Source: Tubiluchus corallicola
Lineage: Eukaryota > Priapulida > Priapulimorpha > Priapulimorphida > Tubiluchidae
Direction of reading: 5' to 3'
NCBI GenBank assembly: GCA_030141605.1
Contig: JAQGDQ010000209.1
Coordinates: 179,501-243,500, forward strand
Length of the DNA: 64,000 bases
Part shown: piece after piece, positions 8,683 through 57,088 of the stretch
Position numbering within the stretch: the stretch's first letter is position 1
Layout of the letters: every line of letters begins with the position of its first letter
The notes under the pieces: generated by a model
Told to the model about the DNA's origin: nothing
Databases searched by the model: none
The model's input: only the letters and a program-made list of their open reading frames with translations
Position numbers and translations under genes: made by a program

Positions 8683-10491
8683 TCACTGTCTTCCCTTTTT
8701 CTTTCCCCGCTTTTTTTGTGTACCACCAGCAGCATCCTGTCGTTTATTTCCCTTCTTTCTTTTTTTACCACCACCAGTTCCTTGCCTATTTTTCTTCTTT
8801 CTCTGTCTGCCACCAATAGCACCTTCTTGTCTAGTACCACCAGTGCCTCTAAGCAAACTTCTTTGAAAACCTCTTCTGACGTCACGGCTGGTACCTGTTT
8901 GGCGGCCTCTGTCCGTTCCTGCAAAGAGATTTCTTTCCGAGCCTCTTCTGAAACTTCTGCCAGTACTTGATGCAGATCCTCTCTTTTTGCCCCTTCTTCT
9001 CAATTTACGTCTGCCCACCTGTTCAACTTCATTCGCTGCGTCAACAGAAGCGCTCTCTGCCTGTCCAATGGGTTCTGCTGCAGTTGCTGTTGTAGCATTT
9101 GATGACCCGCTGGGTTCTGCTGCTGTTGCTGTTGTGGCATTTGATGACCCGCTGGGTTCTGCTGCTGTTGTGGAATTTGATGGGCCACTGGGTTCTGCTG
9201 CAGTTGCTGTTGTAGCATTTGATGACCCGCTGGGTTCTGCTGCTGTTGCTGTTGTAGTATTTGATGACCCGCTGGGTTCGGCTGCTGTTGCTGTTGTAGT
9301 ATTTGATGACCCGCTGGGTTCCGCTGCTGTTGCTGTTGTAGCATTTGATGACCCACTGGGTTCTGCTGCTGTTGTGGAATTTGATGGCTCGCTGGGTTCC
9401 GCTGCAGTTACTGTTGTAGCATTTGATGACCCGCTGGGTTCTGCTGCTGTTGTGGAATTTGATGGCTCGCTGGGTTCCGCTGCAGTTGCTGTTGTGGCGT
9501 TTGATGGCCCGCTGGGTTCTGCTGCTGTTGCTGTTGTGGCATTTGATGACCCGCTGGGTTCTGCTGCTGTTGTGGAATTTGATGGCCCACTGGGTTCTGC
9601 TGCAGTTGCTGTTGTGGCGTTTGATGGCCCGCTGGGTTCTGCTGCTGTTGCTGTTGTGGCATTTGATGACCCGCTGGGTTCTGCTGCTGTTGTGGAATTT
9701 GATGGCCCACTGGGTTCTGCTGCAGTTGCTGTTGTAGCATTTGATGACCCGCTGGGTTCTGCTGCTGTTGCTGTTGTGGCATTTGATGACCCGCTGGGTT
9801 CGGCTGCTGTTGTGGAATTTGATGGCCCACTGGGTTCTACTGCAGTTGCTGTTGTAGCATTTGAAGACCCGCTGGGTTCTGCTGCTGTTGCTGTTGTGGA
9901 ATTTGATGGCTCGCTGGGTTCCGCTGCAGTTGCTGTTGTGGCGTTTGAAGACCCGCTGGGTTCTGCTGCTGTTGCTGTTGTAGCATTTGATGACCCGCTG
10001 GGTTCTGCTGCAGTTGCTGTTGTGGCGTTTGAAGACCCGCTGGGTTCTGCTGCTGTTGCTGTTGTAGCATTTGATGACCCGCTGGGTTCTGCTGCTGTTG
10101 CTGTTGTAGCATTTGATGACCCGCTGGGTTCTGCTGCTGTTGTGGAATTTGATGGCTCGCTGGGTTCTGCTGCAGTTGCTGTTGTGGCGTTTGATGACCC
10201 GCTGGGTTCTGCTGCTGTTGCTGTTGTGGCATTTGATGACCCGCTGGGTTCTGCTGCTGTTGTGGAATTTGATGACCCGCTGAGTTCTGCAGCTGTTGTG
10301 GAATTTGATGGCCCACTGGGTTTTGCTGCTGTTGTAGCATTTGATGGCCCGCTTGGTTCTGCTGCTGTTGCTGTTGTGGCATTTGATGACCCGCTGGGTT
10401 CTGCTGCTGTTGCTGTTGTAGCATTTGACGACATCGTGTCTCCTGGGGCTGTAGCCTGCCTCTCATACCGGTGCCTCAAGGATAACAGCTG
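8683..10491 (-). CDS. repetitive N-glycosylation-rich protein with polybasic tail (terminal exon)
   Basis: An uninterrupted minus-strand frame runs to a stop at 8683-8685. The first in-frame ATG is at 10434 (583 codons to the stop). A plausible 3' splice acceptor (CTTTTTGTAG) ends at 10492, so this may be a last exon beginning at 10491, with the real start and signal peptide upstream and not found. About 34 tandem units of 14 residues (type SSNATTATAAEPSG, 42 bp) and 12 residues (type PSNSTTAAEPSG, 36 bp) each carry an N-x-T sequon and several Thr/Ser, so a secreted, densely glycosylated rod is likely if it is exported. The unit array ends near 9070. The last ~130 residues are non-repetitive and extremely basic (many RR, KKR, GKKKGRQ). 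Because all units are multiples of three, other frames on both strands are also long and open; I prefer this frame because it alone stays open through the whole array and the unique tail. No known family. Confidence 0.55.
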   Translation of the reverse strand, partial: QLLSLRHRYERQATAPGDTMSSNATTATAAEPSGSSNATTATAAEPSGPSNATTAAKPSGPSNSTTAAELSGSSNSTTAAEPSGSSNATTATAAEPSGSSNATTATAAEPSEPSNSTTAAEPSGSSNATTATAAEPSGSSNATTATAAEPSGSSNATTATAAEPSGSSNATTATAAEPSGSSNATTATAAEPSEPSNSTTATAAEPSGSSNATTATAVEPSGPSNSTTAAEPSGSSNATTATAAEPSGSSNATTATAAEPSGPSNSTTAAEPSGSSNATTATAAEPSGPSNATTATAAEPSGPSNSTTAAEPSGSSNATTATAAEPSGPSNATTATAAEPSEPSNSTTAAEPSGSSNATTVTAAEPSEPSNSTTAAEPSGSSNATTATAAEPSGSSNTTTATAAEPSGSSNTTTATAAEPSGSSNATTATAAEPSGPSNSTTAAEPSGSSNATTATAAEPSGSSNATTATAAEPIGQAESASVDAANEVEQVGRRKLRRRGKKRGSASSTGRSFRRGSERNLFAGTDRGRQTGTSRDVRRGFQRSLLRGTGGTRQEGAIGGRQRKKKNRQGTGGGKKRKKGNKRQDAAGGTQKKRGKKKGRQ

Positions 10492-14384: not shown

Positions 14385-17176
14385 CTACAGCTCTGGAGGA
14401 TAGCATCTTTTGGCACGCTTTACTAATATCCAGTTCTTGCAACAAGAATAACCTTTTTTGTTCATGATGCAAGGTATTTGAGGTCCAGCTTCAGGGCAAG
14501 GTTTGGTATCGACACTGAGACCGCTGAAATTAAAAATTATAACGCAGTTTTAAACATTAGGCTGAAAAGATAATAAAAGGAGTGTACAAGTATGAAAAGT
14601 TAAAAAGATGACAGATGGGGAATATCCAGGAACAAATTCCTCACACAATTTAAATACCCGAATCTTTACCCTTACGGTGACCCTAACCTTAACGATAATC
14701 CTAATCCGCATCACGAACTAATTCTTTGTGTGGGGGAAGTGTAAGCTTTAGCCTACTTTTCGTGGAAGGAATCGGGGCTGAAAGTTCATCTCTGACTTTC
14801 TTTAATCAAAAAATTTCAAGGTGAACATTTAAGGACGCCATTCAAGCATCAGTTTTTCCATATTGCCATAATAGCACAATGACACAGTAGGTTTAAGTTT
14901 CCCTGCAGTTTGCTATTTATATATATATATTATAAAGAGCATAAGTATGTTACTTTTCTTTTTGAAGAATGCATATAGGGATGCGCCAGTCCAGGCACAG
15001 AAACGCCAAAAATCAGCATTAAACTGTGCGATGGACCTGCAATTTATTAAAAAAATAATAGATCACAGAAACTGCTTAAAAACGAACGTGCTAAAGATTA
15101 TTTACTATTTAGGCAAAGTGAAAAAATTAGATTTATGAGGACTGAAAATTTACAAAGACTCAAATTACTACCTTATGATTCCAAGCAATTTCTGAAAATT
15201 TTAAATTATTAAGTAACTATTAAAGTAGATAGCGACTTGCATTTACTGATAACAACTTTGGTTTGACAATACAACTAATGACTGTTAAATTATAATAAAA
15301 TCAACAAAGCAATTCAAGTATCACTAAACTGCATGATCAGTATGGCGACAACAGAAAATCTGACCATGTGTAAAAAGAACAGGTGTGATTGGTAGATGAC
15401 GTGTACTACTAAACTAAAGCTTAGGTCACATGACTAAGACTGGCTTCGTTTCAAACACTTTAAGGTCTACAAGTGCACAAACAAATAATTATACAAGATT
15501 AAATTAAATTGCTTGACAGTGACAGTATATATTGTCAGTTTCACAGTGAGGAAGAACTACGTAATAAACTTCAAAATACTTGCTATTTGAATTGTTTGTT
15601 ATTTATTTATTTAATGCTTATAATACAGAGCCATGTGTTCGACTATTAAATATGTAGTCTATGTTTTATCATATCCTACCTGCAGCTTCCTTCTAAGCAT
15701 GCTCGAGATCTCACGTAGGATTTGCAGCCACACCTTCCTTTACAACTAGATGACCACTCATTCCACAAGCCCCATCGAAAATCCTCAACTTTACTTTGAT
15801 GTAGCTGATCCAAACTTGCCTCTTGAGCTCTGCTTGTCCGCATTAGCTTAATATAGCGAGAATTAATCTGTTTTAAGTCGGACAATTTCGACTTACCATT
15901 TTTCATGGCAAGAGCATCAAATTTGTTAGTAGTAGATGTCAATGTTTGTTGTTTTGTTGTGGCTGAACTGGCTACTGTTCTTATTGTAGTTGGCTGTAGC
16001 TTAATATCTTTGGTTTCGAAATTTGATATTGTAGTTTTTGCAGGAAGATTAGACGTTGTTGTTGCAGTAGAAAGTGAAGTTGGAATTGTTGTGGTAGTAA
16101 TTACTGGCGAAACAATTATTGCTGTCCTAGGTGGTGATGTGGTGGTAGTTCTTTTTATATTATGCCTGTTTACAATAGATAACGGTGTTCTAATTGTGGT
16201 AATTGCAGGCATTGGTATAGCGGAAGTTAGTTTAGTAGGAATGGACTTTGCAGTTGTAGTATTACCTGATGCCATAGTTGTTGCAGTAGTAAGCAGTGAT
16301 GTGATCATTGTTGTAGCTTCAGATAATGGTGTAGTAGTTGCTGTTGTTGTATGCACTGATGTGGTAGAACTAGGTGTTGCTGTGGGCATTGATGTAGGCA
16401 TTTTTTTTGTAATAGATGATGATACTGTATTTTTCGCAGTAGTACTAGGTATAAGTGTGGTAATTGCAGGTGTGGTTGGTGGCGCTGTCTGAGCTATAGT
16501 TGGTCCAGTAAAAGTTACCATAGAGGTAATTTTTGCTAATGCAACTGGGATTGTTGCTGTCGACGTGGTGGAAACATCAAAAGCTGAGATTTTTCCTTCC
16601 GGACGAATCTTTAAAACGTGTTTTAGGGGATGATCGTCTGATGAATTTGGATGAACAGCTGAAAAGGAAAATGAGTTGTAATTGCTGCAACTCTGTCCAT
16701 TCAAGAACATATGATATATAGCGTTTGGGTTTATATGGCTATGGACAGTTGCATAATGTGACTTCCTGATTTTTTAGACAGTGATCCAAGTAGTATAATT
16801 TAGTGATGAATCTGATTTGTTCTTTCACATTAGTATGCAAAAGTTGCAAGAATGTGACGTATCATACAAAAATATCATAGAAACATAAACGCGGGGAGGT
16901 TTTAACTGTAAGTGTAACTGGAAATAGTTAGCTGCAGGATCATATAAACTGGATAATTGTATTAATGGCGTTAGAATTGTTTAAACACTTTGGTTTATCC
17001 GTAATAAAGTGTCACAGCACAAAATTAGGCCTTTTACTACGTTTTTCTTACCGGCAACCTCAATAACAACTTTTGAGTCAAAATCAGTATTAGAATTTAG
17101 TTCTAGCAGTAGCTCATTGTAGTCAGATTCAAGATTTTTCCTTCCGTCAGGTAGGACTTCCCTATTCCCGCATAAC
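14385..17176 (-). other. exons 11-13 of the astacin-like gene: CUB end, mucin stalk, TSP1, C-terminus
   Basis: Exon 11 (17176-17052) completes the CUB with LCGNREVLP. Exon 12 (16658-15680) encodes about 270 residues dominated by Thr, Ser, Pro and Ala, suited to O-glycosylation, then the TSP1 start WGLWNEWSSSCKGRCGC and YVRSRAC. It ends at TGCAG|GTAGGA. Exon 13 (14523-14385) finishes TSP1 with LSVDTKPC and adds a 36-residue tail with CC and a basic stretch (LVKRAKR) before TAG. No EGF or second TSP1 follows. Confidence 0.8.
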
Positions 17177-20100: not shown

Positions 20101-23100
20101 TGCAATGTATTTTTTCTATGTTAAGTGATCATGTGCTCGTCGGCAAGATTTATTCAGTGTTTGTATTTTCCGTTTGTTAGGCTAAGGAAATGGAATAAAT
20201 TTAATTGTTCCATTCCATAGACGACCCTTATATTGAATGTCCCATAACATAAATTACAATAAATCCGAGTTACATAAATCCCAATGGCATCTTTTAACTA
20301 TGATTATAACCAGAAAAATAACGTAAACTAGCTAATACTACATTGATGTGTAATATAGGTTTTGACCACATTTGAATTAATTTTGACTGTGAAGATCTCA
20401 TTGAGGTTTATAAAAACTGGTGAAAAAAAAGAAAACATTTTGTTTTATCTTTATTTAAAGTTAATCAAATAGTTGCTTTTATCTAACGTGCAAGGCCATA
20501 AACTAAACTAAACTGCGTATTTTCTTGACTGCAAAATGGTTTAATCAGCAACTCATAGGCGTGAGCATTGTGCATTTCTTCCTATAAACGAAACTAGACT
20601 ATATATTTCCACTAATTCACTTGCAATTTCAATTGACAATAATAAAATCTAGAACCAGGCCAATATTTCTCCCGCTAACTAATGAAAAGTTGAGCATTTT
20701 TCACAAGAGTGTTAGACGGAGCTGTAGCTAAATGTCCCGAACGTACCTGCGTTAATTAAGCTCTGCAGGCGTGTCAAATAACTTGCACGCTGATTGGGCA
20801 GTCAACGAAAATGATTGGCATTATATTACACGTCAATTATCGTAACACAAACTTCTCAGACTGTGTGAAATTATTTGAAAATGAACTAGCTTGTGTCATT
20901 TGTTTTGAAGTATTACGCAAACTAGCAGAACTTTGATATCGTTTTGTTTTTGGATGTCACTGTGCCCGCAAACAATATAATTTTGGACTAAAATTTGTTG
21001 TCTTGCTGGTTGTTACTCCGCTAATATGTTGTATAATTGTGAAAATTTTGGTCAATAAATCTACTACTAGTACTACTACTAACACCAAAGTGAACCCAGA
21101 AAACTGAATACGGATATAGGCTGCTGTCAACTGCAGCACATGATTATAGTTTTAGCACCTAACCGATTGAGTAATGAGAAAATCAAATAGTCCTTAACTT
21201 TTAAACACCGTGTCACTTACACTAATTCTAGGGCAAAATTTTTTATAATAGGCGTAATTTGCAGCATCATCAATAATTATGTTCTTTCATCTATCAGTCA
21301 CATAATTCTTTTTATAACCATTTCTATTTTTTAATATTAGATTTTTAGACTCTTAATTGATTATAATGCGTAATGTTTTTAAATTGTAACGTCATTTTTT
21401 TCGTTGTCTTTTATTTGCTATGTGCTGCTTATGTACGAAGTAAACTGATTGATTTATTGGTTGATTGACTGATTAACTGATTGACTGATTTGGTCAGCAA
21501 CGTTTGTTGCAGTCGTTGTAGCCGTCGTAACTGTCTTGACGTTTTCTTTGTAATTATACTTACCTTACGCCAGGTTTCGTAATGCCATGATGATGGGCTT
21601 CAATGTAGTCTGGACAGTAATTAGAATAATTTGCATATGAAGCCATGTCTAGTGAACCGAATGTTAGTAGAACATGATCTTCAGGTGGAGCCTGTAAAAG
21701 TTTAAATCGAAACGTCTAGCTCCAACTAGCAACTACGCCAACCATTACAATTTGCTTTATAAGTATGAAAACTAGAATGGAAGCGTTTAATGCGTTTGGA
21801 TCTAGCAGCGCCCTACATTTCTTGTAAAGATTATAATATTATCATAAGAATATCGTCGGAAGCGTTTACCTTTGTCACGCGATCCGTTTTTTCGAAAAAG
21901 TTTAAAATACGCAAATAGCGCAGATCCATTTATGCATTAGATTGACGGAAGTCGTAACAATGTAACAATTTTTATGGCAAATCAGTTTAACGGGCATATT
22001 TCAGGATCGTATTAGGACAATTAAAATTTCAGCACATTTGATGGCTGGGCAAAATTTCAGACTGTTACGATGAAAACTGGCTTGTGACACTTTTCAGAAG
22101 TAAATGTGACAAGATTAACACTAACAATAACAACAAGACCAAGTTCTAGGGATCCCGGTTCCCGGCAGTTCGTTCCGGTTCCAAAAATAAATTAAGAAAT
22201 AAACGAGCAAAACAGAATTCGGACCTCACATCATTATCACTGATGACGCGATAGCAACGATATGGTGCTATCAATAAAACCAAGAAACGACTACAAAGTT
22301 ATTCTAACCTAATTCTTTATAAATGTCTAATTAATAAAACAAAGAGACGCTTTTTGCTTGCTGGATCTTACCACAAATAAAAATTTTGCGTTTCGTCTTG
22401 GTTCCAGCACTATGTCTAACTTTGTGGCGCTGCCATCTATGTCAAGGTCAATGACGTCATCGATCTCGCCTAACCAAATTAGCATAAAAAGTATATAGAC
22501 TTGAAAAACGATACTTCCGATTTGCTATTCCTATAATGTGAAGTTTAAGTGTGTAAACTTGAATACTTAATAATGTTCATACAAAATTCGGAACATGTAC
22601 CCACGTAGCAATGTAAATACTATATTACTTTCGGTGGAAGCTTTTCGGTTCCATGCATATTGAAAATAGAGAACAATTAATTTCATTTCCCAAAAAATTA
22701 AATATATTGTAAATCATTATTATGATGAGTACTCTAAGTTTTTGGAAGAATCGGTGAAACTTTGGATATAAATATGATGTAATAATTGCTAACTGAACGA
22801 AAAAATCAGACAAATGTGTAGTCATTCGTAACTTTCAGAACAGTATGCAAAGTAACCAATATTAGTTAATTACTGTGATTAAAAATCTGTATGAAATAAA
22901 TGTGCACGAGAGTTACATGGCAGCGCAATTAATTTTATATTTGTCTAAAAACCTTCATTTATAATACTAATGCGTTTTAAATTATTTACCTACAAATTAA
23001 TTCTCACTTGTAAATATGTTTATAGTCCGCGCTAGTTTTAAATATTGTATTTTATATACGTCGCCTATTTTAATTACTAACTGCACTTTTTGTAAGTAAG

Positions 23101-25755
23101 AAATTCAATAAACAAATAAAAGTAACCTCTATTGTAGCAGAATCGATGCAGAGTTAACAGTTATGTGTCTTTGAATCAAAACATAATGTAATAAGCCTTT
23201 TCACAGTCTTGTTGTGCGCACGAGCAGTTGCTGTAGGTCAGAGGTTACCACAGCAACGCGTCTTAACTATAACCGTCACTTGACATGTGGGTAAAGCAAA
23301 GCCGTCTGCCGCATCAGTTCAGTAAGTTTAGTTGTTTTACGTGGAGTTTACTTAATTATGCACGGACTTTACTTAATTATAGATTAGACTGCGCGTAGAG
23401 TGATTTACCAAGCAAGATCTTGCTTGCGAACAAGAAAAAATGAATTAGGTAAGGTTCTAGTTAGCTGTTAAGACTGTTACTATTACAACAGCATGGGCTG
23501 CGAGGCGTTATCAAGTATACACAAATGCGCTGTCTGGTACACTTAACCTTTGACCTTTTCACGATCATCATGAATCGCTACATAACTGTGAAAAGGTTTA
23601 TTCTATTATGTTTCCACAGTTTAATGGGGAGCACAAAGTCGATTGTATCAGCAACCTTGGCGGTTTTTACCTGGCGAGTCTCCTTGAAGAATTTCACAGA
23701 ACTGACCCGAGAAGCCATAAGGACAAAAACAAGAATCGCAGTTGTTTACGTCTTGCGTACCTTCATGAAGGCAGGATGGGGTTTTGGTATCTTCACACGT
23801 TTCTGAAATAAATTTTTAATTTAATAGGCCTACACAACAGTTGAAAGAAGGGAAGTCTAACTATAAGCCTCGGTAATAAATGCAATAGCACTACCGAAGT
23901 TTTTCTAATAGACATCAGTCAGATACCGTCAATATAATGGCACGCTGTCAAACAAGGAAAACTGACGTTAACAATTCAATACGTTTAATAATTTCAAATG
24001 CTTTAATGTGACCAATAATAATGTAGGCTAAAGATAGTTTTAAGAAAATTAATGATATTAAATGATCAAAGCTCCTGAATGGTCTTCAAATAGCTTCAAG
24101 CGAACGTGGTTATTGTTTTCATTATTCCTACTAGTATATTAAAGATTTGAACCTTTCTTTGCTTTGCCGAAGTGAATGAATTAATAGAAATTCTAATGAA
24201 GCGAATGAAGAAATTGGAGGACGGATATATATATATATATACTAATAGACGAACGAGCAAACCAATAAACGAACAATACACAAATGAAAAAACGAAAAAA
24301 TATGCCACAACCAGCAGTCAAACAAACAAAATACACGCATACTTGTAAACAGTATACTTGTAAACAATATACTTGTAAACAATATACATGCAAACAATAT
24401 ACTTGCAAACAATATACTTCTAAACAACCAAAAACAAGCGCTTCTAGGAAAAGTAAATGAATACAAAAATGAGTACATCGCCCTTTTCCTTTTTCCAAAT
24501 CAAAGTTTGTACTCACTTGAGCAATACATGTGATTTAGAAGGGCCACATCTAAGAAAGTAAGATGATCTCGCTGTCCAATGGATCTAAATAGACCAAGCT
24601 CTTTCGAGCGAATTGTCGGCAATGGCCTCAATTTTGTAAATGCCTAGAAAGGAGAAAATCTAGTATCTGTGCTATACTTAGCAGTTGCATGCTTATCATG
24701 GGTATGTTTGTTCATTTCTTGTAGTTTCCTGCAAAAGTTCCTGCAGTAAGTGTTGCTGCGAAGCAATGAGCAGTCAAAGGAAGGTATAAATCTTTCTAAA
24801 ACAAATGAAAAATATTTTTTGACAACCATCCAAATTGCAAATTCCGTCGCAAAGCTTGACTGTCATCTTCGACATCACGTGCTAGTGGACTGGAGTTATA
24901 ATAGAACTATCGATTATATTATATTTATAAGTTATTTATTAAAAATTATTGCCAATTACAAAAGGAACAAAAACGAGAATTTGATTACTGAACATGCGAT
25001 TCTCGAGAATTTTAGTAACATCAAACCTGGCTTCATAAGCTTAATTCGTCGATTTTAATTTACAACTACATAGCACGTTCTTTTCTGCATAGCCATGCAT
25101 GCAACGATTTTACACTTTGCTTAACGCGTTCAGACCAAGGTCGCTTCAAAAGTCTGAGCAACAGTTTGTCATAAGATGAATATTGATTAGTTGCAAAGAA
25201 AATGGAAAATCAAATAAACCAGTGATTTCTGAAGTGCCACACATGTCTTCTTATTTAGAGACTTGTTTAGTCTATCATATGTCTTCATACGCTTAAAGAT
25301 GCTCAAACCTTTTCTCCAAATGACACCAAAAATATAAATTTAGTATCAGCACCAACTTACTTTGTAAATGACCCTTTTATTTTAAGATGGTGCTGCTAAA
25401 TTTCAATAAAATGGGTTTTCAGTAAAATAAACTAGAATAATTTGTGTAGTTTCTGAGACCATTGGTTGTAGCTCATTGCGGTCTTAAATATTGCACTGGG
25501 GCGTTTATAACTTAATACATTAATTTAACTGGATTTCTGTGTTACTTGACAGGAACCTTGCTTTATTAAACACAATGATTTTAGCACTCACTTTAATACT
25601 CTTTTAAATAACATCACTGTAAATAATGTTATATGCACCTTTATAAAAGCTAATTACAGAAGCCGTAACGTGTAATATTGTAGAATTCACTCTATGCAAA
25701 ATTGTATAATGTTTGTACAGAAATTTTTGCCTGGAAAAAAAACTAATAAAGACTT

Positions 25756-25822
<67 letters not shown>

Positions 25823-28800
25823 CCATCATCATCATCGTCATCACCATCACCATCACCATCATCATTATCATCGTCGTCATCATCATCATTTCATTAGTAA
25901 TTTTACAGAACATAAACACAATCGCCTTGAATTGTAGGACAACGAAAGAAGTGAAACAGCAACCATTACTGAGAGAAAGCATCACAAACGCTCTTTTAAA
26001 TCTTTACTATTAACTCAGTTAACTCAGTCAACGTGAACGTTCTAATTAAGCAAATTTGCGTTTATATTAAAGACGAAAACCAAGTTGACTTCAATTTATA
26101 GAGTAAAGATCAGAGAAAGTGTCACATCAATTTACCACAAGTCTATTGACTGTAATAATTCTTCCTCGTAATAATAACGATGAAATTATTTACAAATTTT
26201 AATCAAACTGTGTCATATATGTATCGTATGTCGGAAGTGGTGCTAATGAGCCATTGGCATAGCAGTGTTTGGCGTTTGCTGAAGTATCAGCTGTGTTTAC
26301 CTGTCTTGAGGGCAGATTTCTTTCATATTAGAATTTCTACCTGCCCGGTGTCTATAACAAGACTAACAGACGTATTGGTGCGACAAAGACGACGACGATG
26401 ACGATGATGATAGTGATGTTTATCAACACTTTCCTCAAAACCCATGCTGGAGTTAATGACAAACCTCAGTAGAATAGTGCATCAAACTAGACATATCGTA
26501 AGGCAAGTTGTAAGTTTCAAACCCATGAACGTAGAAGTTTTGTTCAGTTCCTACAGCAATGTTCTTCTGAATCATACGCATGTGCGAGTTGATATCTCTT
26601 CGAGAATTTTGATGCCAAATGCCAAGGGCATGGTTGACCAGATGCATGATCATACCTTTCTAGAAATGTCAATAAATTATGAGAGAAAAATATTTATCAA
26701 CATTTGTTTGCCAATAATTTTATTCTCTTAAATATTTCTTCTACTAGTAAAATTACTGTGCCATTAATTAAAAGATTGTCATAAATAATCTAATATTGTA
26801 CTTCAGTTTTCCGGATGAGAATTCTTCCATTTTACTGAAGCAAAAAAGAACTGGTGAAATACTTTACGCAACTGTTTTGCACTTGTCATTGATTACTATC
26901 TCTTGCTGTCCACCAATTCGGCCTATGTACGAGTAACACCTGTAAAAATGATCCCAGAGATTTATAAATACTTCGTGAGTCTAACCTAGGCTCTAGTATA
27001 GCCGAATATCACCAGCAGGTCGTTATATACGTCTGAAAGATGTAATTTTTGGTCACTCTTTTAAGAAGATTCATTCATTAGTTAACCTTGGAAACGGAAA
27101 GCAAAGACCTGTAAATCATCAGAATTAGAATTTCTCTGGTTAAAAATATGTGTCCAAAAACTTAGCGCGAAAATCACTACATTACAGGCAGCATTTATAA
27201 TGCCAAAAGTATTGAAGGTGGATATATTGAAAGCAAAAACAAAACGTAGTCCAAAAACAAAAATAAACAGAAGTTGTTTTATCGAATAAATAAAATTTTA
27301 ACTCTCAGATAATTCGATACTTAACTCAATGTATTAATAACTGTTAAATGGTTAAATGCCAGAAGATTATTTGTAACAAGTTACCGACTTCCCCGAGTGA
27401 AAAGTAAAGAATCGTTCTCTGATCTTAAAGGTGACCTGCTGAGTTGAAATCGCAGACAAGTACTTTTTTCTAAAGCCTCCAAACCTTGCACAATTGTGTC
27501 AGAAACCATTTCATCTGTAATCATGATGTTAAATTTAATATTAATTGATCGTGGAGCTGTCTATCAGCTCTAATCAATAAAAATCTACCAGATCATTCAA
27601 AAGTTGTCATATGAGAATTTAGAGTATGCGAATTATCATGCAAGACTGAATAAATTTTGCACTACCTCAGTCTTTTCAAATATTTAAAATCCGACACTAC
27701 AAAAATCTATACTGGATAATTTGCAAGATTTTTTAATCGTTCCGTTTCAGTATTAGTAAGTAAGCAGACCTAAGAAGTGATTACCTCAAGAAAAAGTCAC
27801 GGTATAGGGCACTATGTTATCCGGTGCGCGGCGAAAATGGCTCAGTAAAAGTGGCACAGGAAAACATGGCAGAAATGGAAAAGTAGGTAAAATAGCACTT
27901 GAAAAAATGACACGGTAAAAATGGCACATGAAAAAAGGCACATATGTTATTTTAATGCAATTGATTTCTATAATAGAATGCGCTCAGTAGAAAACTCATG
28001 TTATCCGATACTTGCAACATTAGCTTCACGGCATGACCTAGCTAAATGAGCTTTATCATTATCCATTTAAAGGACAAGAATAGAGAATTCATACAAAAGA
28101 CTTAAAACATTAGTCTCGAAATCTTGCATCATCTACATATTGTCTTACTGCACACAGAACATGTGTAAGCGATAACGCTGTATGAAACTTGTAAATTTAA
28201 ACTCCCACTTTAACTGTTAGCCGCAGCCATTTTAACGTTCAATCGTTAATAAGAAACGGAAACAAATTTAGATAACATCGCATAAGGTTAAGAAAACAAC
28301 CAGAGCATTCTTAACGCACACACTTCAATAACTAAGCAAATGTATAAATTACTATCTTGTCAATAAGATTAATAATATTTTTTTGGTAAGTCAGTGCTGC
28401 ACACTGCGATAGCGAAACAGTGATGTTTTATCAGTTAAATATTAAGTATTTTCTTTTTCAGTTACATAAGTATTTCTAACAGATTCTAATCTATTAAGAA
28501 ATAAATAACAAGAGTAATGCAAAATGATATAAGTTTATGTCAATGGAACGTTTTTTGCGACATACTTTAAAATTCAATTTCCTTCTCCTTTATTTGTCAA
28601 ATTTGCCACATATATTTGCCTAACAGCTAAATAAAAAGTATGTGCAACTGCCACGATATATTTTTTGGTATCTAAAAGCGTAAAATTTATAAAATTAAGG
28701 CCAAGTGCGGTCGCGGCTGTTAAAGAACTGTTTGCCTTAAAAAATAATTTCCATTGTCTTACCTAAATTTCTGATTTCGTAATAGATTGGTGATGTCCAT

Positions 28801-30638
28801 AAAGCTACGAATTCGTCAGTTGTTACACGATTTCTATTCCCTTTGCTTCTTACATTTTTACTTGATGGTGTTTCTTTCACTGATGCGATAAACGGTGATT
28901 GCTCATTTCTTGTTAAAATTTTAGCTTTCCCTTTTTCTTGAACATTTTCGTTTGCTGGTCTATCTATCAGCACGGGGTTTAGCAATGTTGTTGAATTGTG
29001 TGATGGAAAATGTGTTATTGATTTTTGTGTTGGTGTTGCCAATGAATGTGTTTTTGATTTTTGCTTTGGTGTTGTCAGTGGCTCTGATGCCGATTTTCGC
29101 TTTGGTGATATCAGTGGGTCTGTTGCCGATTTTTGCTTTGGTGATGTCAGTGGCTCTGTTGCCGATTTTTGCTTTCGCGTTGTCAGTGACTCTTTTACTG
29201 ATTTTTGTGATGATGTCGTCAGTGTCTCTTTTACTGATTTTTGCTTTGGTGATGTCTGTGGCTCTGTTACCAAATTTTGCTTTGGTGATGTCTGTGGCTC
29301 TGTTGCCGATTTTTGCTTTCGCGTTGCCAGTGACTCTTTTACTGATTTTTGTGTTGATGTTCTCGGTGAATCTGTTATTGATTTTTGCGTTGATAATGTC
29401 AGTGACTCTGCTATTGATTTTTGCGCTTGTGTTGTTAGCGACTCTTTTACTGATTTTTGTGATGGTGTTGTCAGTGGCTCTTTTACTGACTTTTCTGATG
29501 GTGTTGTCAATGGCTCATTTACTGATGTATGTGTTGATGTTGTCAGTGACTCTGTAATTGATTTTTGTGTCATTATCTGTAATTGGCTTCCAGGTTTGTC
29601 TGTTTTTGGTGCTTCTGTTAATAATGAATTTGTTGTTTTTGTTGTCTTTAATAAATCTGCTGATATTCTAGTTGTGGGTACATTCATTGCAATAGTAGAT
29701 GTTTTCCTAGGTGTCGTTAATGCTGCTGTTGTCTTAGCTGTAGCACTTCTTATTTGCGGCATCTCTGTTTTACTAGACTGTTTTAGAGACTTTGATTTTA
29801 TTAATGTACGTTGTGTTGGGCTTTCCCTTGTACCTGACGTCTCTATTGTCTTTCTGTTTAGTGTTTGCACGTTCGAGTTTGCCACGTTATTGCGAAATTG
29901 CATCGTAGGTACAACTATGGGGTTGAGCCTCATTCTAGATAAATGAGGTGGCATAGTGAATATTTGTCTCTTTTCTCTCCGTTTAGCCAGCAGTGGACTG
30001 AAAAGTCTACGTGCCTGAGACTCGCTTTTTAACAGTATGTCACCTTGCCACAATGGATCGATTTCTTCTGCCGAGAACTGAAAAAAGGAAAAGTGATTTT
30101 TCTTCTGACGTGTATACGAGTGAGGTTTGTAGAAAAAAACAAAAAATAATGAGTTTACCATTTCTGTACGTCCAAAAATCTTCGCCATTTCTTGCTGAGC
30201 GATCGTTATTAATTCGGTGATTTCACCGATCCATTCTCCTTGTAGCTTTATGATTTCGTCCTGTCAGGAAAACAACGAAAATAAATTTGACAATGCACGA
30301 ACGTTAAATTTTATTAATTTTCATCATATTATTAATATGATAAGTGCTAATTCTACTTGCTTATGTCATTCGTTCGCCATTTTAAAAGCCGGTCTCTATC
30401 ATTAGGTTCAATAACCTAGCCTTGAAAGTCTAAAGTAATCAATCTATAAGCAAAAAGTCAATTTCGGTCTTACTTGGTATTTGGCTATTTCTTCTTTACT
30501 TATTACAACAGTTGTTGGGTCCATTACATCTGGAGGTGGTACAATTTTCAGTCCAGCTGGTAGAGCGCTTACATTCCAAAACAACACTGCCCAAGTGACA
30601 ATCGCCGTCGATCTGTTTCTGCAATAGAATGAACCCAT
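14385..30638 (-). CDS. astacin-EGF-CUB-TSP1 secreted protein, probable pseudoprotease
   Basis: I assemble 13 exons whose phases fit at every join: 30638-30474, 30260-30159, 30077-28763, 27514-27385, 26939-26873, 26659-26465, 24643-24517, 23802-23671, 22469-22372, 21691-21564, 17176-17052, 16658-15680 and 14523-14385 (stop TAG). The product is about 1233 residues: signal peptide, pro-region, Ser/Thr linker, astacin domain (about 505-699), EGF (702-735), CUB (about 746-862), mucin-like stalk, TSP1 (about 1157-1197) and a short Cys-rich end. This is the order of nematode NAS astacins with EGF, CUB and TSP1. All four astacin cysteines (547, 572, 591, 699), the three zinc histidines (599, 603, 609) and the Met-turn SLMHY are present, but the catalytic Glu is Leu600. 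The donor of exon 5 (ACA|GTTGCG) is weak; the nearby GC|GTAAAG would shift the frame. A second in-frame ATG lies upstream at 30683. Confidence 0.8.
17315..18775. repeat. large foldback element: two ~430-bp inverted arms
   Basis: The segment about 17315-17745 is the reverse complement of about 18330-18775 with scattered mismatches. For example AACAAGTTTAGATAACA in the right arm matches the complement of the left, as do GGTGCACACTGGGAAAGTGA, TAATGCTGAGTAATATAACT and the T/C-rich end GCCTTTCTCCC. The roughly 580-bp spacer holds an (ACTT)n-ending retroposon tail near 18150. The whole lies in the intron between astacin exons 10 and 11. A third, single-arm copy is at 28140-28600. Confidence 0.8.
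18795..19705 (+). pseudogene. 3' end of a broken LINE ORF2
   Basis: Plus-strand frames give fragments of a retrotransposon C-terminus. FWSKLSSEPEKHELL precedes a 100-residue open stretch (19280-19585). In a shifted frame, LRLQSHNFRIETGR, an internal stop, REPRERRLCDCSALQTEVH and RPLTEQVRNN follow (19540-19700). The RIETGR and LCxC blocks are typical of the zinc-knuckle-like end of CR1/L2-type LINEs. Frameshifts and stops show it is dead. Its upstream edge abuts the right arm of the foldback repeat. Confidence 0.7.
21040..21085 (+). repeat. retroposon tail with (TAC)n repeat
   Basis: The sequence GTCAATAAATCTACTACTAG and further TAC units resembles the 3' end of a LINE or SINE, an AATAAA-like word followed by a simple-repeat tail. 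It lies in an intron of the astacin-like gene. Confidence 0.45.
21564..24643 (-). other. exons 7-10 of the astacin-like gene: astacin C-terminus, EGF, CUB first part
   Basis: Exon 7 (24643-24517) ends the astacin fold with IGQRDHLTFLDVALLNHMYC. Exon 8 (23802-23671) is an EGF-like module, with PSCLHEGTQDVNNCDSC then FCPYGFSGQFCE. Exon 9 (22469-22372) is inferred from its boundaries (TTAG acceptor, GTG|GTAAGA donor), correct phase on both sides, and its ending AKFLFV, which joins APPEDHVLLTF of exon 10 (21691-21564) as in CUB strands. Exon 9 has no cysteine, so the first CUB disulphide appears absent. Exon 9 is the least certain of the set. Confidence 0.7.
24345..24426. repeat. 15-bp tandem repeat (ACTTGTAAACAATAT)
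   Basis: About five and a half contiguous units of a 15-bp word with few substitutions lie in the intron between astacin exons 7 and 8. Open frames through it are by-products of the unit length. Confidence 0.85.
25755..25893 (+). repeat. (ATC)n microsatellite, likely retroposon tail
   Basis: About 45 ATC/CAT units with CAC, CGT and TTA variants in the second half. It is preceded by ACTAATAAAGACTTATC, so a polyadenylation-like word leads straight into the repeat, as in LINE or SINE 3' tails. It lies in an intron of the astacin-like gene and creates poly-Ser, poly-His and poly-Met open frames that are not genes. Confidence 0.85.
26465..27514 (-). other. exons 4-6 of the astacin-like gene: zinc site with lost catalytic Glu
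   Basis: Exon 4 (27514-27385) gives the helix and EKSTCLRF; exon 5 (26939-26873) gives CYSYIGRIGG and the third cysteine; exon 6 (26659-26465) gives KGMIMHLVNHALGIWHQNSR through SSLMHYSTE. The family motif is HExxHxxGxxHExxR. Here it reads H-L-V-N-H-A-L-G-I-W-H-Q-N-S-R: histidines and glycine are kept, but both glutamates are replaced. The Leu codon is CTG on the minus strand at 26641-26639, two changes from GAG. Spacing from Cys591 to His599 (seven residues) is canonical only if exon 5 ends at ACA, which supports the weak donor. Confidence 0.8.
27825..27950. repeat. degenerate short repeat based on AAAAATGGCAC
   Basis: At least six spaced, diverged copies of (A)AAAATGGCAC occur, for example GTAAAAATGGCACATG. 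A single similar word, GGTAAAAATGGCAC, lies at 115-128. It is in the intron between astacin exons 3 and 4. Confidence 0.5.
28140..28600. repeat. third copy of the foldback arm
   Basis: This segment has the same orientation as the right arm at 18330-18775. Shared blocks include CGATAACGCTGTATGAAA against CAACAACGCTGTCTGAAA, ACAAATTTAGATAACA, CTTGTCAATAAGATTAA, and TTTTCAGTTACATAAGT. It is more diverged and stands alone, in the intron between astacin exons 3 and 4. Confidence 0.7.
28763..30077 (-). other. exon 3 of the astacin-like gene: aspartate switch, furin-like site, repeat linker
   Basis: The exon begins after TTTTTTCAG and carries the WQGDI motif (Asp102), the astacin-family inhibitory aspartate, and then KRREKR (residues 121-126), which fits a furin RxKR site. 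Instead of passing into the enzyme it continues for about 380 residues of Ser/Thr/Lys-rich sequence. About 16 units of roughly 12 residues (type QKSVKESLTTPS, 36 bp; about 29015-29575) form its core. The exon ends with the astacin start, ALWTSPIYYEIRNL, and the donor TTTAG|GTAAGA in phase 1. Confidence 0.75.
30159..30638 (-). other. exons 1-2 of the astacin-like gene: signal peptide and pro-region
   Basis: Exon 1 (30638-30474) encodes MGSFYCRN followed by the hydrophobic segment AIVTWAVLFWNVSA, a typical signal peptide with a likely cut before LPAG, and ends at CAA|GTAAGA. I chose ATG 30638 because the alternative at 30683 would put 15 polar residues before the hydrophobic core. Exon 2 (30260-30159) encodes 34 residues (DEIIKLQGEW to FGRTEM), predicted helical, ending ATG|GTAAAC. 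Both exons end in phase 0. Confidence 0.75.
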
Positions 30639-30683
30639 TGTGGCACATTCTCTTTCAGTTCTCCAAGACTGACATCTTTTCAT

Positions 30684-37249: not shown

Positions 37250-37995
37250 CTCAATTGCCTATCTCTGACGCAAGGTATTTTCCCTGACAGTTTAAAAGTA
37301 ACTAAATTAGTACCAATTTGTAAATCTAACATACCAGAAAACCCATATGACTACCACACAATATCGATACTAACACCAATCGCGAAACTAGTTTAAGATG
37401 TGATGTATAAAAGAACTAATAATTTTTTAACTATAAATAATGTGCTATCAAAATTCCAATTTGGATTTTGAAAGAATTATTCTATTTTTCTAGCAACTGC
37501 AGAAATAGTGAACACTCTAGTACACATTTACACAGGTAATAAATTGCACACATTTGACTTATTTCTATATCTGTTAAAGGCTTCTGATATGGAAGTACAG
37601 CACACCGCTCTAAATTAGAATCTTATGGCACCCTTGGAACAGCATTAACTCTAAATAAATCTTACTTAACTAACAGACAGCATTATACGACAATCAATAA
37701 CACAAATTCAAATTATGAAATAATGATATGTGGCATACCCCATGGATCGACACTAGGGCCACTGTTATTTCTGTTGTGCGTGAACGACCGATCACACTGT
37801 ACTGTTCAAAATTTAACTCCAGGTTATTCGCAGACGGCATTAATCTGTTCCTATCAGACAATAATGTAAATAATCTAGAGACAAACACTAATGTGTAATT
37901 ATCCAAAATCGGTTGCTGGATGCACGCTAATCAATTATCCGAAAATTTTAAAAAACCAAATTCATGCTCATTGAACCATCTTTCCGTTTAACTGG
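37250..37995 (+). pseudogene. broken LINE reverse transcriptase (Jockey/CR1 type)
   Basis: Translating across frames gives IFPDSLKVTKLVPICKSN, YDYHTISILTPIAKLV, NNVLSKFQFGF, then CGIPHGSTLGPLLFLLCVND and RLFADGINLFLSD, and finally LSKIGCWMHANQLSEN. These correspond in order to reverse-transcriptase blocks of Jockey/CR1 elements. The PQG of GIPQG is PHG and the FADD box is FADG, so the catalytic site is destroyed. Several stops and frameshifts are present. Confidence 0.88.
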
Positions 37996-39417: not shown

Positions 39418-39975
39418 AAATCTCCCTTCGATTTGTGGAAAGAATTTTTCACTGATGTTTTCACGAGATCGTGCATTAGTCAATTCTTTACGCAACACGT
39501 GATAAAAATCGGGCCGATTTCAACATTCAGAAAGATGAGTTGTATGTGTTTTTTGGTATAACGTTACTTTCGGGTTACAACAGACTTCCTAGTAAGCAAT
39601 GTTACTGGAGCAATGCGCAGGACTTGGGCTTTTCAATTGTGAAGGAATCGATGAGCTCAAAGCGATTTTTATGCATCAAGAGATATCTCCATCTTGCTGA
39701 TAATCAAAATTTGTCTGCTGGAAAGCTACCGAAAGTTAGCCCTCTGTTCGACGCACTGAATGAATCGCTCAAAAAATTTGGCCTCCTTGATTCTCATCTC
39801 AGCATCGACGAATCAATGGTTCCGTATTCCGGAAGACACAGCGCTAAGCAATTTATAAGAGGAAAGCCTATTCGTTTTGGCTACAAACTGTAGGCCATAT
39901 GTGCAAATAATCGGTTCCCTTACCATCTGGAGGTGTACGTAGGCAGCAAACCAAATGAACAGAAGTCTAACGTCA
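39418..39975 (+). pseudogene. broken piggyBac transposase (PGBD/DDE_Tnp_1_7)
   Basis: The left part reads KSPFDLWKEFFTDVF, then shifts frame near 39480 and continues [39 protein letters not shown] and [20 protein letters not shown], closing with [10 protein letters not shown]. These blocks are the piggyBac family core, with the first catalytic Asp in SIDESM. The codon after YKL, normally Trp (as in FGYKLW), is TAG, and in-frame sequence AICANNRFPYHLEVYVG carries on after it. The C-terminal third is missing. It is a dead fragment. Confidence 0.9.
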
Positions 39976-43322: not shown

Positions 43323-44561
43323 TTACACACTGTAACCACTGACTAGTGTTGTATAAGGTATTTCTTTCTTTTGCCAAAACAGAATGCACGATGAGATCAA
43401 ACCAAGAACCTACACAGAAAAAAGTGTTCAAAATACTGATTAGCTAAAAAGCAAAACGATAAAAAATTAGAAAAGAGAAGTGCAATAACTAATGCTGTTC
43501 TTCATTTTCACATTATAAACAGCTATCTTATGAAAATTAAACTAACTCGAAGTGCAATAACTAATGCTGTTCTTCATTTTCACATTAGAAACAGCTATCT
43601 TATGAAAATTAAACTGACTCGAAGTGCAATAACTAATGCTGTTCTTCATTTTCACATTAGAAACAGCTATCTTATGAAAATTAAACTCACTCGAAGTGCA
43701 ATAACTAATGCTGTTCCTCATTTTCACATTAGAAACAGCTATCTTATGAAAATTAAACTAACTCAAATACCATTTAATTTGTGATTTGTTAATTTATATG
43801 CAGCTTGTACTGCAGCACAGCAAAATGTTTTTGTAAAAATTACTTATGTAGTAGTTCTTTTTTACTAACAAAAGCTTTGCAATCTGTTTCTTCAATAGTT
43901 CACCTGTTGAACATAAGCCATTAAGGTTTTTGAGACATTCTCTCACAAGAAGTGATAAGCTAATCACTAATCAAAGCTGCATAAATAAAAAAATAAAAAA
44001 TGCTTGGCCAAGTAGTAAAAAACTCGGCTAAACTCAAAAATACATATTTTCACGTAGAATTGCTTACATTCAAAATAAATAAAAACAGCAGTTTTTCAAA
44101 CATTGTGGTAAACTTACCAATAAAGTCACAATACCAATAGCCAAACCAATTATGTAGCCCAAATGGTCCCGAAATTCTTGCTCTAACTTTTCGAGACATC
44201 CCTAAATCAAAAGCATTGATGTCAGTTTTTGAATCTTTTGTCACATCAACAACTACGTATGACAGAAAATGCAGTTATAGTCTCTTTCAATATTTCGACC
44301 AGCAAAAATAAATGAAAGAACCACCAACTATATCAAAAGCAGATCAGGGTCACAAAGAATAGATGTTAAAAAACATCACAGTTACCATTTAATAATGTTT
44401 TACGCATGTGGCAAATAAAAATCAATAGTTATAAATCATACAAGGAGAAATATGTTTAAGAAAATTTTTTAACTTGATTGTTGCTCAAAATTGCATGCAA
44501 GCTTAGATGCCTACAAATTGCACATTTAACCACGACTGTGTTTTGTTGTACATATTACTGT

Positions 44562-44658
<97 letters not shown>

Positions 44659-47600
44659 TATATATATGTGTATATATATTTCCAATTTAGCAAATTCAAA
44701 TAATAATAGCTTACCACAGTGTAAATTTGCAAAGGTTCAATTGTTGATGAGGTGTTACAGTTTGGGTTAATACAGCAACTGGGAGGGACTGCATTGTGTT
44801 CAGCATACCAAGGTGTATCTGTCCAGTCTGTGTAGTTGTAACCACCACAACATTTCAGCTGAATTTATTAATACAAATTATTAATAAAACATCATACAAA
44901 TGCATTATGGAATCCTTCTCAGCTAAAAAGAAAGAATGTTGACTACAACTTTAAGTACCAGTGATGTCTATTGGTGCAATTAACAAATCGCACAGAGTAA
45001 AGAATCTGTCAATCTTAAGAAAAGGAGTCAAGCTATCAGAACATTAGGTAAGTAAGTAAACAGGACATTGGAACAAACAGAAGGCAACTTTTGAACTAAA
45101 AAAGATTATCTAATCACAAAAAGTTGTCCTTCAATAAGGGAATTTTTAAAACCTGAAATGAGAAATTAATTTACATTTAATTACAGGCAACAGTTAACAG
45201 TTCTACTGTCTCATAAAATATATTCAGCTTGACAAAGCAAAAAAAAATTGTAAGTTAGTTGAACTAGGCTAACCTCGATTTGCATGTAGTCGACTTCATT
45301 TCGCAATTCAGTATTACTGTCTGAATAATTATGCAGAGCTTCTTCAACCTTTCCATGGAAAGTCTCCTTCAGCTGGTAGTAAAAGAATAGTTATTTAATA
45401 ACCATGTTGCCACTAAGTAATTAATGCGCAGTGACAGAACGTATCAGCATGCAATCACAATTTCTCAACATTTAAGCTAATAATGTTATATTAAAAATAC
45501 CCAGAAACTCATTCAATATTGAAAAGATTATCTCCAAGAAGCTTTATAGTTAATAAGTATAGCGACAAAAATTCAATCAATACTACTTATGTCACTGTAA
45601 TGGATGAATAGCATTATGTCAGCCTACTCGAAACTGCACTGATTTATTGTTATAAATCTAATATAAAATAATATACCAAGACCAGTATTCTCAACAATAT
45701 TAAACATAAATAATCATGAACTAAAAGCAAACAACTATAGACCAGAAATTATATCAAGAATTGCATTAATCTGTACCTAACTTAGCTTAGGCCCATTGAT
45801 CATGGTAAATTCTCAAAAATTTTGTTCAAAAATGCCATGACGGCTACTTACCATGTCCTTATAGACATAGCCTAATACGCCAGCAGTGATCAACAAAACT
45901 AATATTACCAGTAGTAGACCGAACAACTAAAAAAATACAAAAACGAGTTTTATGAAAGACTAAAAATTTAAGAAAAATGAAAGCTAGTCATAATTAATTC
46001 ACAGCAAATTAATTCCTGGCAAAATACAAAGAGACTATAAAAATCCAAGACAGTCAAGCAATCAAACTTAAAGCAAAGCACAAGTCACGCAGCACGTTGG
46101 GTTTATTTTATCACTTAAACTTAGAAAAAGATAACAAAGACGTTTACAAAAAAAGTGTTTATAAAGTAAAAAATTAATTTATACTACATCTGTATAGAAA
46201 TTTTCAGGTATGGTGGTAGCTGCTAATCAGGTGACAATTATGACATAGCTGGTAGACTTCATTAATTTTCGTAAGAGCATTGTGGCTTTCTGTAAGTGTG
46301 CACTGCTTAAACTAATTCAAACTTCTACAGACTGCCTAATGTTCATGCAAAAGTATCACAATACTAGCAATCTAACTTTTTGTAAAAACTTATTGTACTT
46401 TAGACAGAAGTTTACAGTGTGCTGCTTTTCTTCGACCGATGAAAGGCATAATAGGTGGAACAATGGGCGTTCAAGACGGAAGCACTCAAAGAGTGACGTG
46501 ATCGCAAAATAAACTGATTTTACTAATAATACAAGGTGCTCATCATACTGTTATTACTAAATCCTTATAACATTTCTCACAAACATTGAAATAAGCTCAA
46601 CTTCCCAGAAGGCTTGGTCTTTCCTTTAAAACATCTAAGCAGTACTATAAGCATAATGCATTGCAATGTCAGTGCTTTTTTGCCTGAGTGGCACGATATG
46701 TAAATGTTCAATTACAGACATCTCACAGCAAAAAACCAGAACAATGTAATTTTAGTGGCTAAGATTAACCTATAAATAGATTCCAGATTTTGACTAACAT
46801 TGTTTTGCTGTAAGATAAACAGTTGGAACTTACTTACAGTGGCCAGAAGACAGCGATTCGTTTGACAAGCACCGCAGCAACTTAGAATTCCCATGATAAA
46901 CATGCCTAAGCCAACTGCCATAGCAATTATAGCTGGCACGAGGGTATACTTGGCCTCAGTAATGTGTTCATAGTGACCATAAGTTTTGAACACATAGCCA
47001 CCAGCAAATATCAAAGCAGCTGCTGCCCCCTGAAATTGACGAAAAAAATTTGTTAACAGTATCTCAGGGCTACTTCTGTTATTGATTTATTATTAACTCT
47101 ATGCAAGAATTACCAATATTAATTCTCTACGTTATTTATTTATGGATTTATATAAAACACCATTTTCTTGATAACCACTTCTTGGTGATGAATTACATAT
47201 CAAACTAATCACGTCAATTTCCCGTGGTCCAGTGGGTTTATTTTTCAATTCAAGTCTGGGAGGAACGGCGGGCAATAAATACAGGCTGAAAGTGTGCAAA
47301 ACCTATAAAGTTGAGAATTGAAGAATGGGACTGTGAGAGATGGAGTGCTGTATTATCAGAAAGAGCTTTCAGTGGAAACTGTAACTGGCATAGTTTGATT
47401 TCTTGAGGCCTCCGCAATAAGCATTTTTCTAGACCCACCTACACGGAATTTTTTTTTTGAAACTTTGGCTAAACACAGTGTACAAAATTCATTGCATTTC
47501 TCTTTAGCATATTTCATTTTCCTCACTACATATATCCATTTTATTATATTATTTTGCTCATTGTTTCAGACATTATCATCAAGTTTTATACTATTTTTTC

Positions 47601-48930: not shown

Positions 48931-57088
<8,158 letters not shown>

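What the first reader, a model, noticed from the sequence alone, without database searches (positions are those of the whole stretch)
26465..26659. Astacin domain with intact zinc ligands but no catalytic glutamate
The signature reads HLVNHALGIWHQNSR where the family has HExxHxxGxxHExxR. The three zinc histidines, all four domain cysteines, the SLMHY Met-turn and the GQR end are kept, yet the general-base Glu is Leu and the Glu that anchors the mature N-terminus is Gln. Two lost active-site residues in an otherwise well-kept secreted multidomain protein suggest a zinc-binding pseudoprotease, perhaps a matrix binder or a competitor of active astacins.
Basis: partly seen in the sequence, partly recalled or inferred. 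Interest (0 to 1): 0.85.

Follow-up and report, generated by a model that had tools for sequence, protein, structure and literature searches.

The report
Astacin protease lacking its catalytic glutamates
An animal gene for a secreted protein carries a well-preserved zinc-protease domain in which both key glutamates are replaced, so it is probably a protease look-alike that binds rather than cuts, although one poor splice signal and the lack of relatives to compare leave room for a gene that is simply decaying.

Summary
Exon 26465-26659 (minus strand) encodes the centre of an astacin (M12A) domain, HLVNHALGIWHQNSR; the domain, spliced from five exons, matches Pfam Astacin over positions 2-189 of 189 (160 bits). 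In 37 aligned homologues these are Glu in 36 of 36 and 37 of 37 rows. The gene model has 13 phase-compatible exons and 1233 aa: signal peptide, propeptide with aspartate switch, astacin, EGF-like, CUB-like, Thr-rich linker, TSP1-like end. CUB and TSP1 are my reading only. Best explanation: a zinc-binding pseudoprotease of matrix or cuticle. Against: the exon 5 donor, directly before the active-site exon, scores below about 90% of GTs in the window, so decay or mis-splicing is a live rival. Orthologues, dN/dS and transcripts could not be tested (genome search did not complete). Glu-to-Leu here is a known recurrent break in related zincins (PMC3650047): new member of a known kind.

The parts
30474..30638 (-). 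exon 1: signal peptide and start of propeptide (an in-frame ATG also lies upstream at 30683)
   Evidence: hydrophobic stretch read by eye; donor CAA|gtaaga
30159..30260 (-). exon 2: propeptide
   Evidence: phases fit
28763..30077 (-). exon 3: propeptide with aspartate-switch motif WQGDI (Asp 102), RREKR site, Ser/Thr/Lys/Pro-rich stretch (36-bp repeat at 29013-29567), NRNR|V507 at the position of the mature astacin N-terminus, start of the astacin domain
   Evidence: motif by comparison with FXGDI in PMC9848320 (passage)
27385..27514 (-). exon 4: astacin domain, first Cys (TCLRF)
26873..26939 (-). exon 5: astacin domain, Cys 2 and 3 (CYSYIG...DKC); very weak donor ACA|gttgcg
26465..26659 (-). 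exon 6: active-site exon HLVNHALGIWHQNSR ... SLMHY; Leu for the general-base Glu, Gln for the family-specific Glu
24517..24643 (-). exon 7: end of astacin domain (IGQR ... HMYC)
23671..23802 (-). exon 8: EGF-like module
   Evidence: searches (factor IX EGF, E 0.0023; Pfam EGF_C8A_B_C6 below cut-off, E 0.034), Cys pattern
22372..22469 (-). exon 9: CUB-like region, part 1
   Evidence: phases; CUB label by reading only, no Pfam hit and no CUB protein among the PDB hits
21564..21691 (-). exon 10: CUB-like region, part 2
   Evidence: reading only
17052..17176 (-). exon 11: CUB-like region, part 3
   Evidence: reading only
15680..16658 (-). exon 12: Thr-rich linker and TSP1-like WxxWxxW start
   Evidence: TSP1 label by reading only (searches found no match)
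14385..14523 (-). exon 13: Cys-rich C-terminus and stop codon

Best explanation
The gene encodes a secreted, multidomain astacin whose protease domain still folds and probably still holds zinc through three His (and the Met-turn Tyr) but cannot hydrolyse peptides, because the general base is Leu. It also lacks the Glu that anchors the new N-terminus after activation. Most likely it works as a non-catalytic extracellular binding protein: the zinc cleft and the C-terminal EGF/CUB/TSP1-like modules hold matrix or cuticle proteins, and it competes with, shields substrates from, or scaffolds active paralogues. Shown: gene architecture as a model, residue losses, retained zinc ligands and disulfide Cys. 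Inferred: folding, zinc occupancy, absence of activity. Speculative: the partner and the competitive role.
For: Pfam Astacin 160.4 bits over model positions 2-189 of 189. Of 11 columns invariant among the 37 homologue rows (counting columns with at least 20 rows), the window keeps 9 and loses exactly the two Glu. 13 exons, 3702 nt open, all phases compatible; 11 of 12 donors lie in the best 6% of GTs of the window. Aspartate-switch motif kept (WQGDI for FXGDI). A deposited astacin-family chain with Ala at the general-base position (8a28) is described with its zinc (figure legend), so the site can hold metal without this Glu. Under plain neutral decay, three changes in the two Glu codons with an intact frame have a maximum likelihood of 1e-7 to 7e-6 (3e-7 to 2.4e-5 if the weak donor counts as one hit), against 0.31 if the frame was kept by selection (post hoc and approximate).
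Against: The exon 5 donor ACA|gttgcg scores below about 90% of all GTs in the window; if the GT 5 nt downstream is used instead, the frame runs into a stop at the start of exon 6 (read). No transcript, orthologue or paralogue was seen. Besides the two Glu, four of the 23 columns at least 85% conserved also differ, and the DRD motif is partly lost. The CUB-like and TSP1-like regions matched nothing in Pfam; the PDB gave nothing for the TSP1-like region and no CUB protein for the CUB-like one. Binding partners are pure inference.
Confidence: 0.52

Rival explanations
1. A recently or slowly decaying astacin gene: catalytic residues and the exon 5 donor were lost under relaxed selection, and the protein is absent or useless.
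For: Very weak exon 5 donor immediately before the active-site exon; both Glu and part of the DRD motif altered; CUB-like and TSP1-like regions without Pfam matches.
Against: No stop or frameshift in 3702 nt and 13 phase-compatible exons; the other nine invariant positions kept; three changed bases in the two Glu codons against an otherwise intact frame is improbable under neutrality (approximate).
Confidence: 0.3
2. The exon 5-exon 6 junction is mis-modelled, or the assembly is wrong locally, and the native protein differs around the active site (alternative donor, unseen exon, sequencing error).
For: Donor quality.
Against: CKT|KGMIMH gives the family spacing from the third Cys to the motif (alignments); exon 6 has a normal-looking acceptor and a donor within the best 6% of GTs; no second astacin exon was found in the window; the Leu codon differs from both Glu codons at two or more bases, which one base error cannot explain.
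Confidence: 0.12
3. The domain keeps some hydrolytic activity with an unusual general base.
For: Zinc ligands and Met-turn Tyr are intact.
Against: The Glu is the catalytic general base/acid in the family (PMC9848320, passage) and Leu cannot replace it; Glu in 36 of 36 homologue rows.
Confidence: 0.03

Closest known systems
Nematode astacins of subgroup V (NAS-33 to NAS-38, e.g. DPY-31/NAS-35, NAS-36, NAS-37)
   Same: Secreted, propeptide, astacin domain, then EGF-like, CUB-like and TSP1-like regions in that order (PMC2824743, PMC4406453; passages)
   Different: DPY-31 carries HExxHxxGFxHExxRxDRD (PMC4406453, passage); here HLxxHxxGIxHQxxRxDIN. CUB and TSP1 are not confirmed by any profile; organism unknown.
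Catalytically dead ADAMs with zinc His kept (ADAM7 HQLGHNLGMQHD, ADAM29 HHLGHNLGMNHD; M12B)
   Same: Zinc His and Met-turn kept, general-base Glu lost (PMC11266112 Table 2, passage); E-to-L is a recurrent break seen in reprolysins (PMC3650047 section 6)
   Different: M12B with disintegrin modules, not M12A; no astacin family-specific Glu to lose (the residue there is Asp).
Hatching enzymes: HCE1 (3vtg) and LOC792177 protein (3lqb; zebrafish hatching enzyme, recalled)
   Same: Closest solved structures by sequence (E 4.4e-24 and 1.1e-23); share NHALG
   Different: Both Glu present; solved chains of about 200 residues hold the catalytic domain only.

Membership tests
Astacin family (M12A) | Astacin catalytic-domain fold by sequence profile | tested here: met
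   PF01400 160.4 bits, cut-off 22.5, 2-189 of 189
Astacin family (M12A) | Zinc motif His/His/His with Gly (HxxxHxxGxxH) | tested here: met
   HLVNHALGIWH
Astacin family (M12A) | General-base Glu | tested here: not met
   Leu, CTG at 26641-26639; Glu in 36 of 36 homologue rows with a residue there
Astacin family (M12A) | Family-specific Glu after the third His | tested here: not met
   Gln, CAA at 26611-26609; Glu in 37 of 37 rows (one of the two retrieval patterns allowed only E or Q here)
Astacin family (M12A) | XXRXDRD motif after that Glu | tested here: not met
   NSRRDIN: R and first D kept, last R and D lost (motif from PMC9848320, passage). Several bacterial homologues also vary here
Astacin family (M12A) | SxMHY Met-turn | tested here: met
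   SLMHY
Astacin family (M12A) | Four Cys of the two disulfides | tested here: met
   exons 4, 5 and 7
Astacin family (M12A) | Propeptide aspartate switch FXGDI | tested here: met
   WQGDI, Asp 102, Phe replaced by Trp; motif from PMC9848320 (passage). A PDB search with this stretch found no propeptide
Astacin family (M12A) | Peptidase activity | not testable with these tools
   needs purified protein; predicted absent
Nematode astacin subgroup V | EGF module after the astacin domain | tested here: inconclusive
   factor IX EGF E 0.0023, Pfam below cut-off
Nematode astacin subgroup V | CUB domain | tested here: inconclusive
   no Pfam hit, no CUB protein among PDB hits; reading only
Nematode astacin subgroup V | TSP1 domain | tested here: inconclusive
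   WxxWxxW...C pattern read by eye; no Pfam or PDB hit
Nematode astacin subgroup V | Host organism is a nematode | not testable with these tools
   genome search unanswered; no other call names the organism
Zincin pseudopeptidase | Fold kept, catalytic residue lost | tested here: met
   by sequence
Zincin pseudopeptidase | Maintained by selection and expressed | not testable with these tools
   no orthologues or transcripts reachable; only an indirect frame argument

The most novel reading that the evidence does not exclude
A conserved lineage of pseudo-astacins in a nematode-type cuticle or matrix protein: zinc retained as a docking site, catalysis and the N-terminal activation lock abandoned together, used as a decoy or scaffold that tunes active astacins.
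Probability: 0.25. Interest if true: 0.65.

Novelty: new member of a known kind. Interest (0 to 1): 0.4.

Why it matters
Pseudopeptidases are described in many metallopeptidase families. In the passages I saw of a 2024 review (PMC11266112), astacins are named once, as metzincin relatives, and the substitution table shows no M12A case. My eight paper searches listed no paper whose title or abstract start reports a pseudo-astacin; the larger ones showed only part of their hits. A maintained one would offer a natural test of whether the astacin cleft can serve as a zinc-dependent binding site, and loss of both glutamates together would suggest that the N-terminal anchor is kept only for catalysis. 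If it is a dying gene, it is ordinary.

Tried and rejected
Mutually exclusive active-site exon: not found in the window (only a chance-level match at E 0.32 and three HE..H pentapeptides on the plus strand without astacin context). Single-base sequencing error at the Leu codon: rejected, two or more bases differ from both Glu codons. Own-genome paralogues and taxon: the genome search for PF01400 was unanswered. Viral contigs: 48 stretches matched a pattern, none a relative. Propeptide against PDB: three hits, none an astacin. I first thought the long propeptide insert unusual; astacin propeptides of 34 to 486 residues are reported (PMC9848320, passage), so I dropped that. Papers looked at by passages without finding a pseudo-astacin: PMC11673157, PMC8191133, PMC4826915, PMC8879239, PMC10050594.

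Recalled, from no call: that MEROPS lists non-peptidase homologues for M12A; the donor consensus weights used; the substitution and indel ratios used.

Full report
What is there. The minus strand of the window carries a multi-exon animal-type gene. Exon 26465-26659 encodes KGMIMHLVNHALGIWHQNSRRDINSHMRMIQKNIAVGTEQNFYVHGFETYNLPYDMSSLMHYSTE. Alone it matches Pfam Astacin with E = 1.1e-15 and 17 distinct solved sequences at E up to 1, named as hatching enzymes, meprins, tolloid/BMP1 and astacins among others. With its neighbours it forms a complete astacin domain: 160.4 bits, E = 5.2e-47, model positions 2-189 of 189; the best solved relatives are 3vtg and 3lqb, fish hatching enzymes.

Gene model. 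Thirteen exons from 30638 to 14385 give 1233 residues with every phase compatible and no internal stop. Order: hydrophobic N-terminus; propeptide with WQGDI, one residue off the FXGDI aspartate switch (motif from PMC9848320, passage); RREKR; a Ser/Thr/Lys/Pro-rich stretch with a 36-bp repeat; NRNR followed by V507, which lines up with residue 1 of mature crayfish astacin (1ast aligned query 9-192 to chain 9-194); the astacin domain; an EGF-like module (E 0.0023); a CUB-like region; a Thr-rich linker; a TSP1-like end. The CUB and TSP1 labels are my reading of the sequence: Pfam gave no match for either, the PDB gave none for the TSP1-like part and only unrelated weak hits for the CUB-like part (E 0.2 or worse). 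If they are right, the order is that of nematode subgroup V, described as nematode-specific in PMC4406453 (passage). No call names the organism.

The lost residues. I aligned all 34 bacterial loci fetched, whose retrieval patterns do not cover the general-base position, with three solved animal enzymes. Some rows are short or distant (E up to 8e-5). The general base is Glu in 36 of 36 rows with a residue there, and the family-specific Glu is Glu in 37 of 37 (one of the two retrieval patterns required E or Q at the latter). Among columns with at least 20 rows, eleven are invariant; the window keeps nine and loses exactly those two. Of 23 columns at least 85% conserved, the window differs at six: the two Glu, plus Trp to Leu, Gly to Asn (Asn also in both hatching enzymes), Phe to Ile, Ser to Thr. 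The XXRXDRD motif also loses its last R and D, though several bacterial homologues vary there too. The Leu codon is CTG at 26641-26639.

Mechanism. In astacins this Glu is the general base/acid, and the family-specific Glu binds the buried new N-terminus after propeptide removal (PMC9848320, passages). Leu cannot do the first job. With three His and the Met-turn Tyr intact, zinc binding is likely; the solved chain 8a28 has Ala in place of the Glu (alignment) and its structure is described with zinc (figure legend; that the Ala is engineered is my inference). Loss of both Glu fits a protein that no longer needs activation. The most likely role is non-catalytic binding in matrix or cuticle. The role is inference.

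Evidence against. Eleven of the 12 donors fall in the best 6% of the 7305 GTs in the window (both strands); the exon 5 donor ACA|gttgcg falls in the worst 10-11% (recalled consensus weights). It sits directly before the active-site exon. Using the GT 5 nt downstream would run into a stop at the start of exon 6. So decay or mis-splicing is a real rival. Against simple neutral decay, a rough likelihood calculation gives 1e-7 to 7e-6 for three changed bases in the two Glu codons plus an intact frame, and 3e-7 to 2.4e-5 if the donor is counted as one hit, against 0.31 if the frame was kept. This is post hoc, assumes ancestral Glu, independent changes and recalled indel ratios, and does not replace orthologues.

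Novelty. Dead zincins are well known. E-to-L at the general base, which needs two base changes, is reported as about threefold over-represented and seen in reprolysins (PMC3650047, section 6 read); dead ADAMs with the zinc His kept are tabulated in PMC11266112 (passages), where I saw no M12A case. Eight searches listed no paper reporting a pseudo-astacin in its title or abstract start; one search listed 20 of 175 papers, 20 of 61, 12 of 74, 6 of 7, and the other four listed all their hits (3, 5, 5 and 5). Subscription papers are mostly not held. I therefore call it a new member of a known kind, with the M12A placement as its main novelty.

Noticed in passing
8686-10491 (-): 602-aa ORF made largely of a 42-bp tandem repeat (SNATTATAAEPSG-type, rich in N-glycosylation-like NAT/NST/NTT triplets) with a basic Lys/Arg/Gly tail; long open frames cover the repeat in all three minus frames. 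No Pfam match.
   Followed up: partly
39480-39890 (+): Fragment of a transposase matching DDE_Tnp_1_7 (PF13843, E 1.6e-31), piggyBac type by recall.
   Followed up: partly
51504-57085 (+): Exons of an ATP synthase alpha subunit; one exon matches PF02874 (E 1.2e-8), the others are recognised by eye.
   Followed up: partly
44529-47086 (-): Tetraspanin-like exons (46715-47086 E 4e-7, 30.4 bits against a Pfam cut-off of 32.1; 44529-44864 E 0.025).
   Followed up: partly
43477-43764: Four 72-bp tandem copies, 97% matches.
   Followed up: no
28942-29946 (+): 334-aa open frame antisense to the repeat exon 3 of the astacin gene, probably a by-product of the 36-bp repeat.
   Followed up: no
37588-37866 (+): Reverse-transcriptase-like fragment, recognised by eye only.
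   Followed up: no
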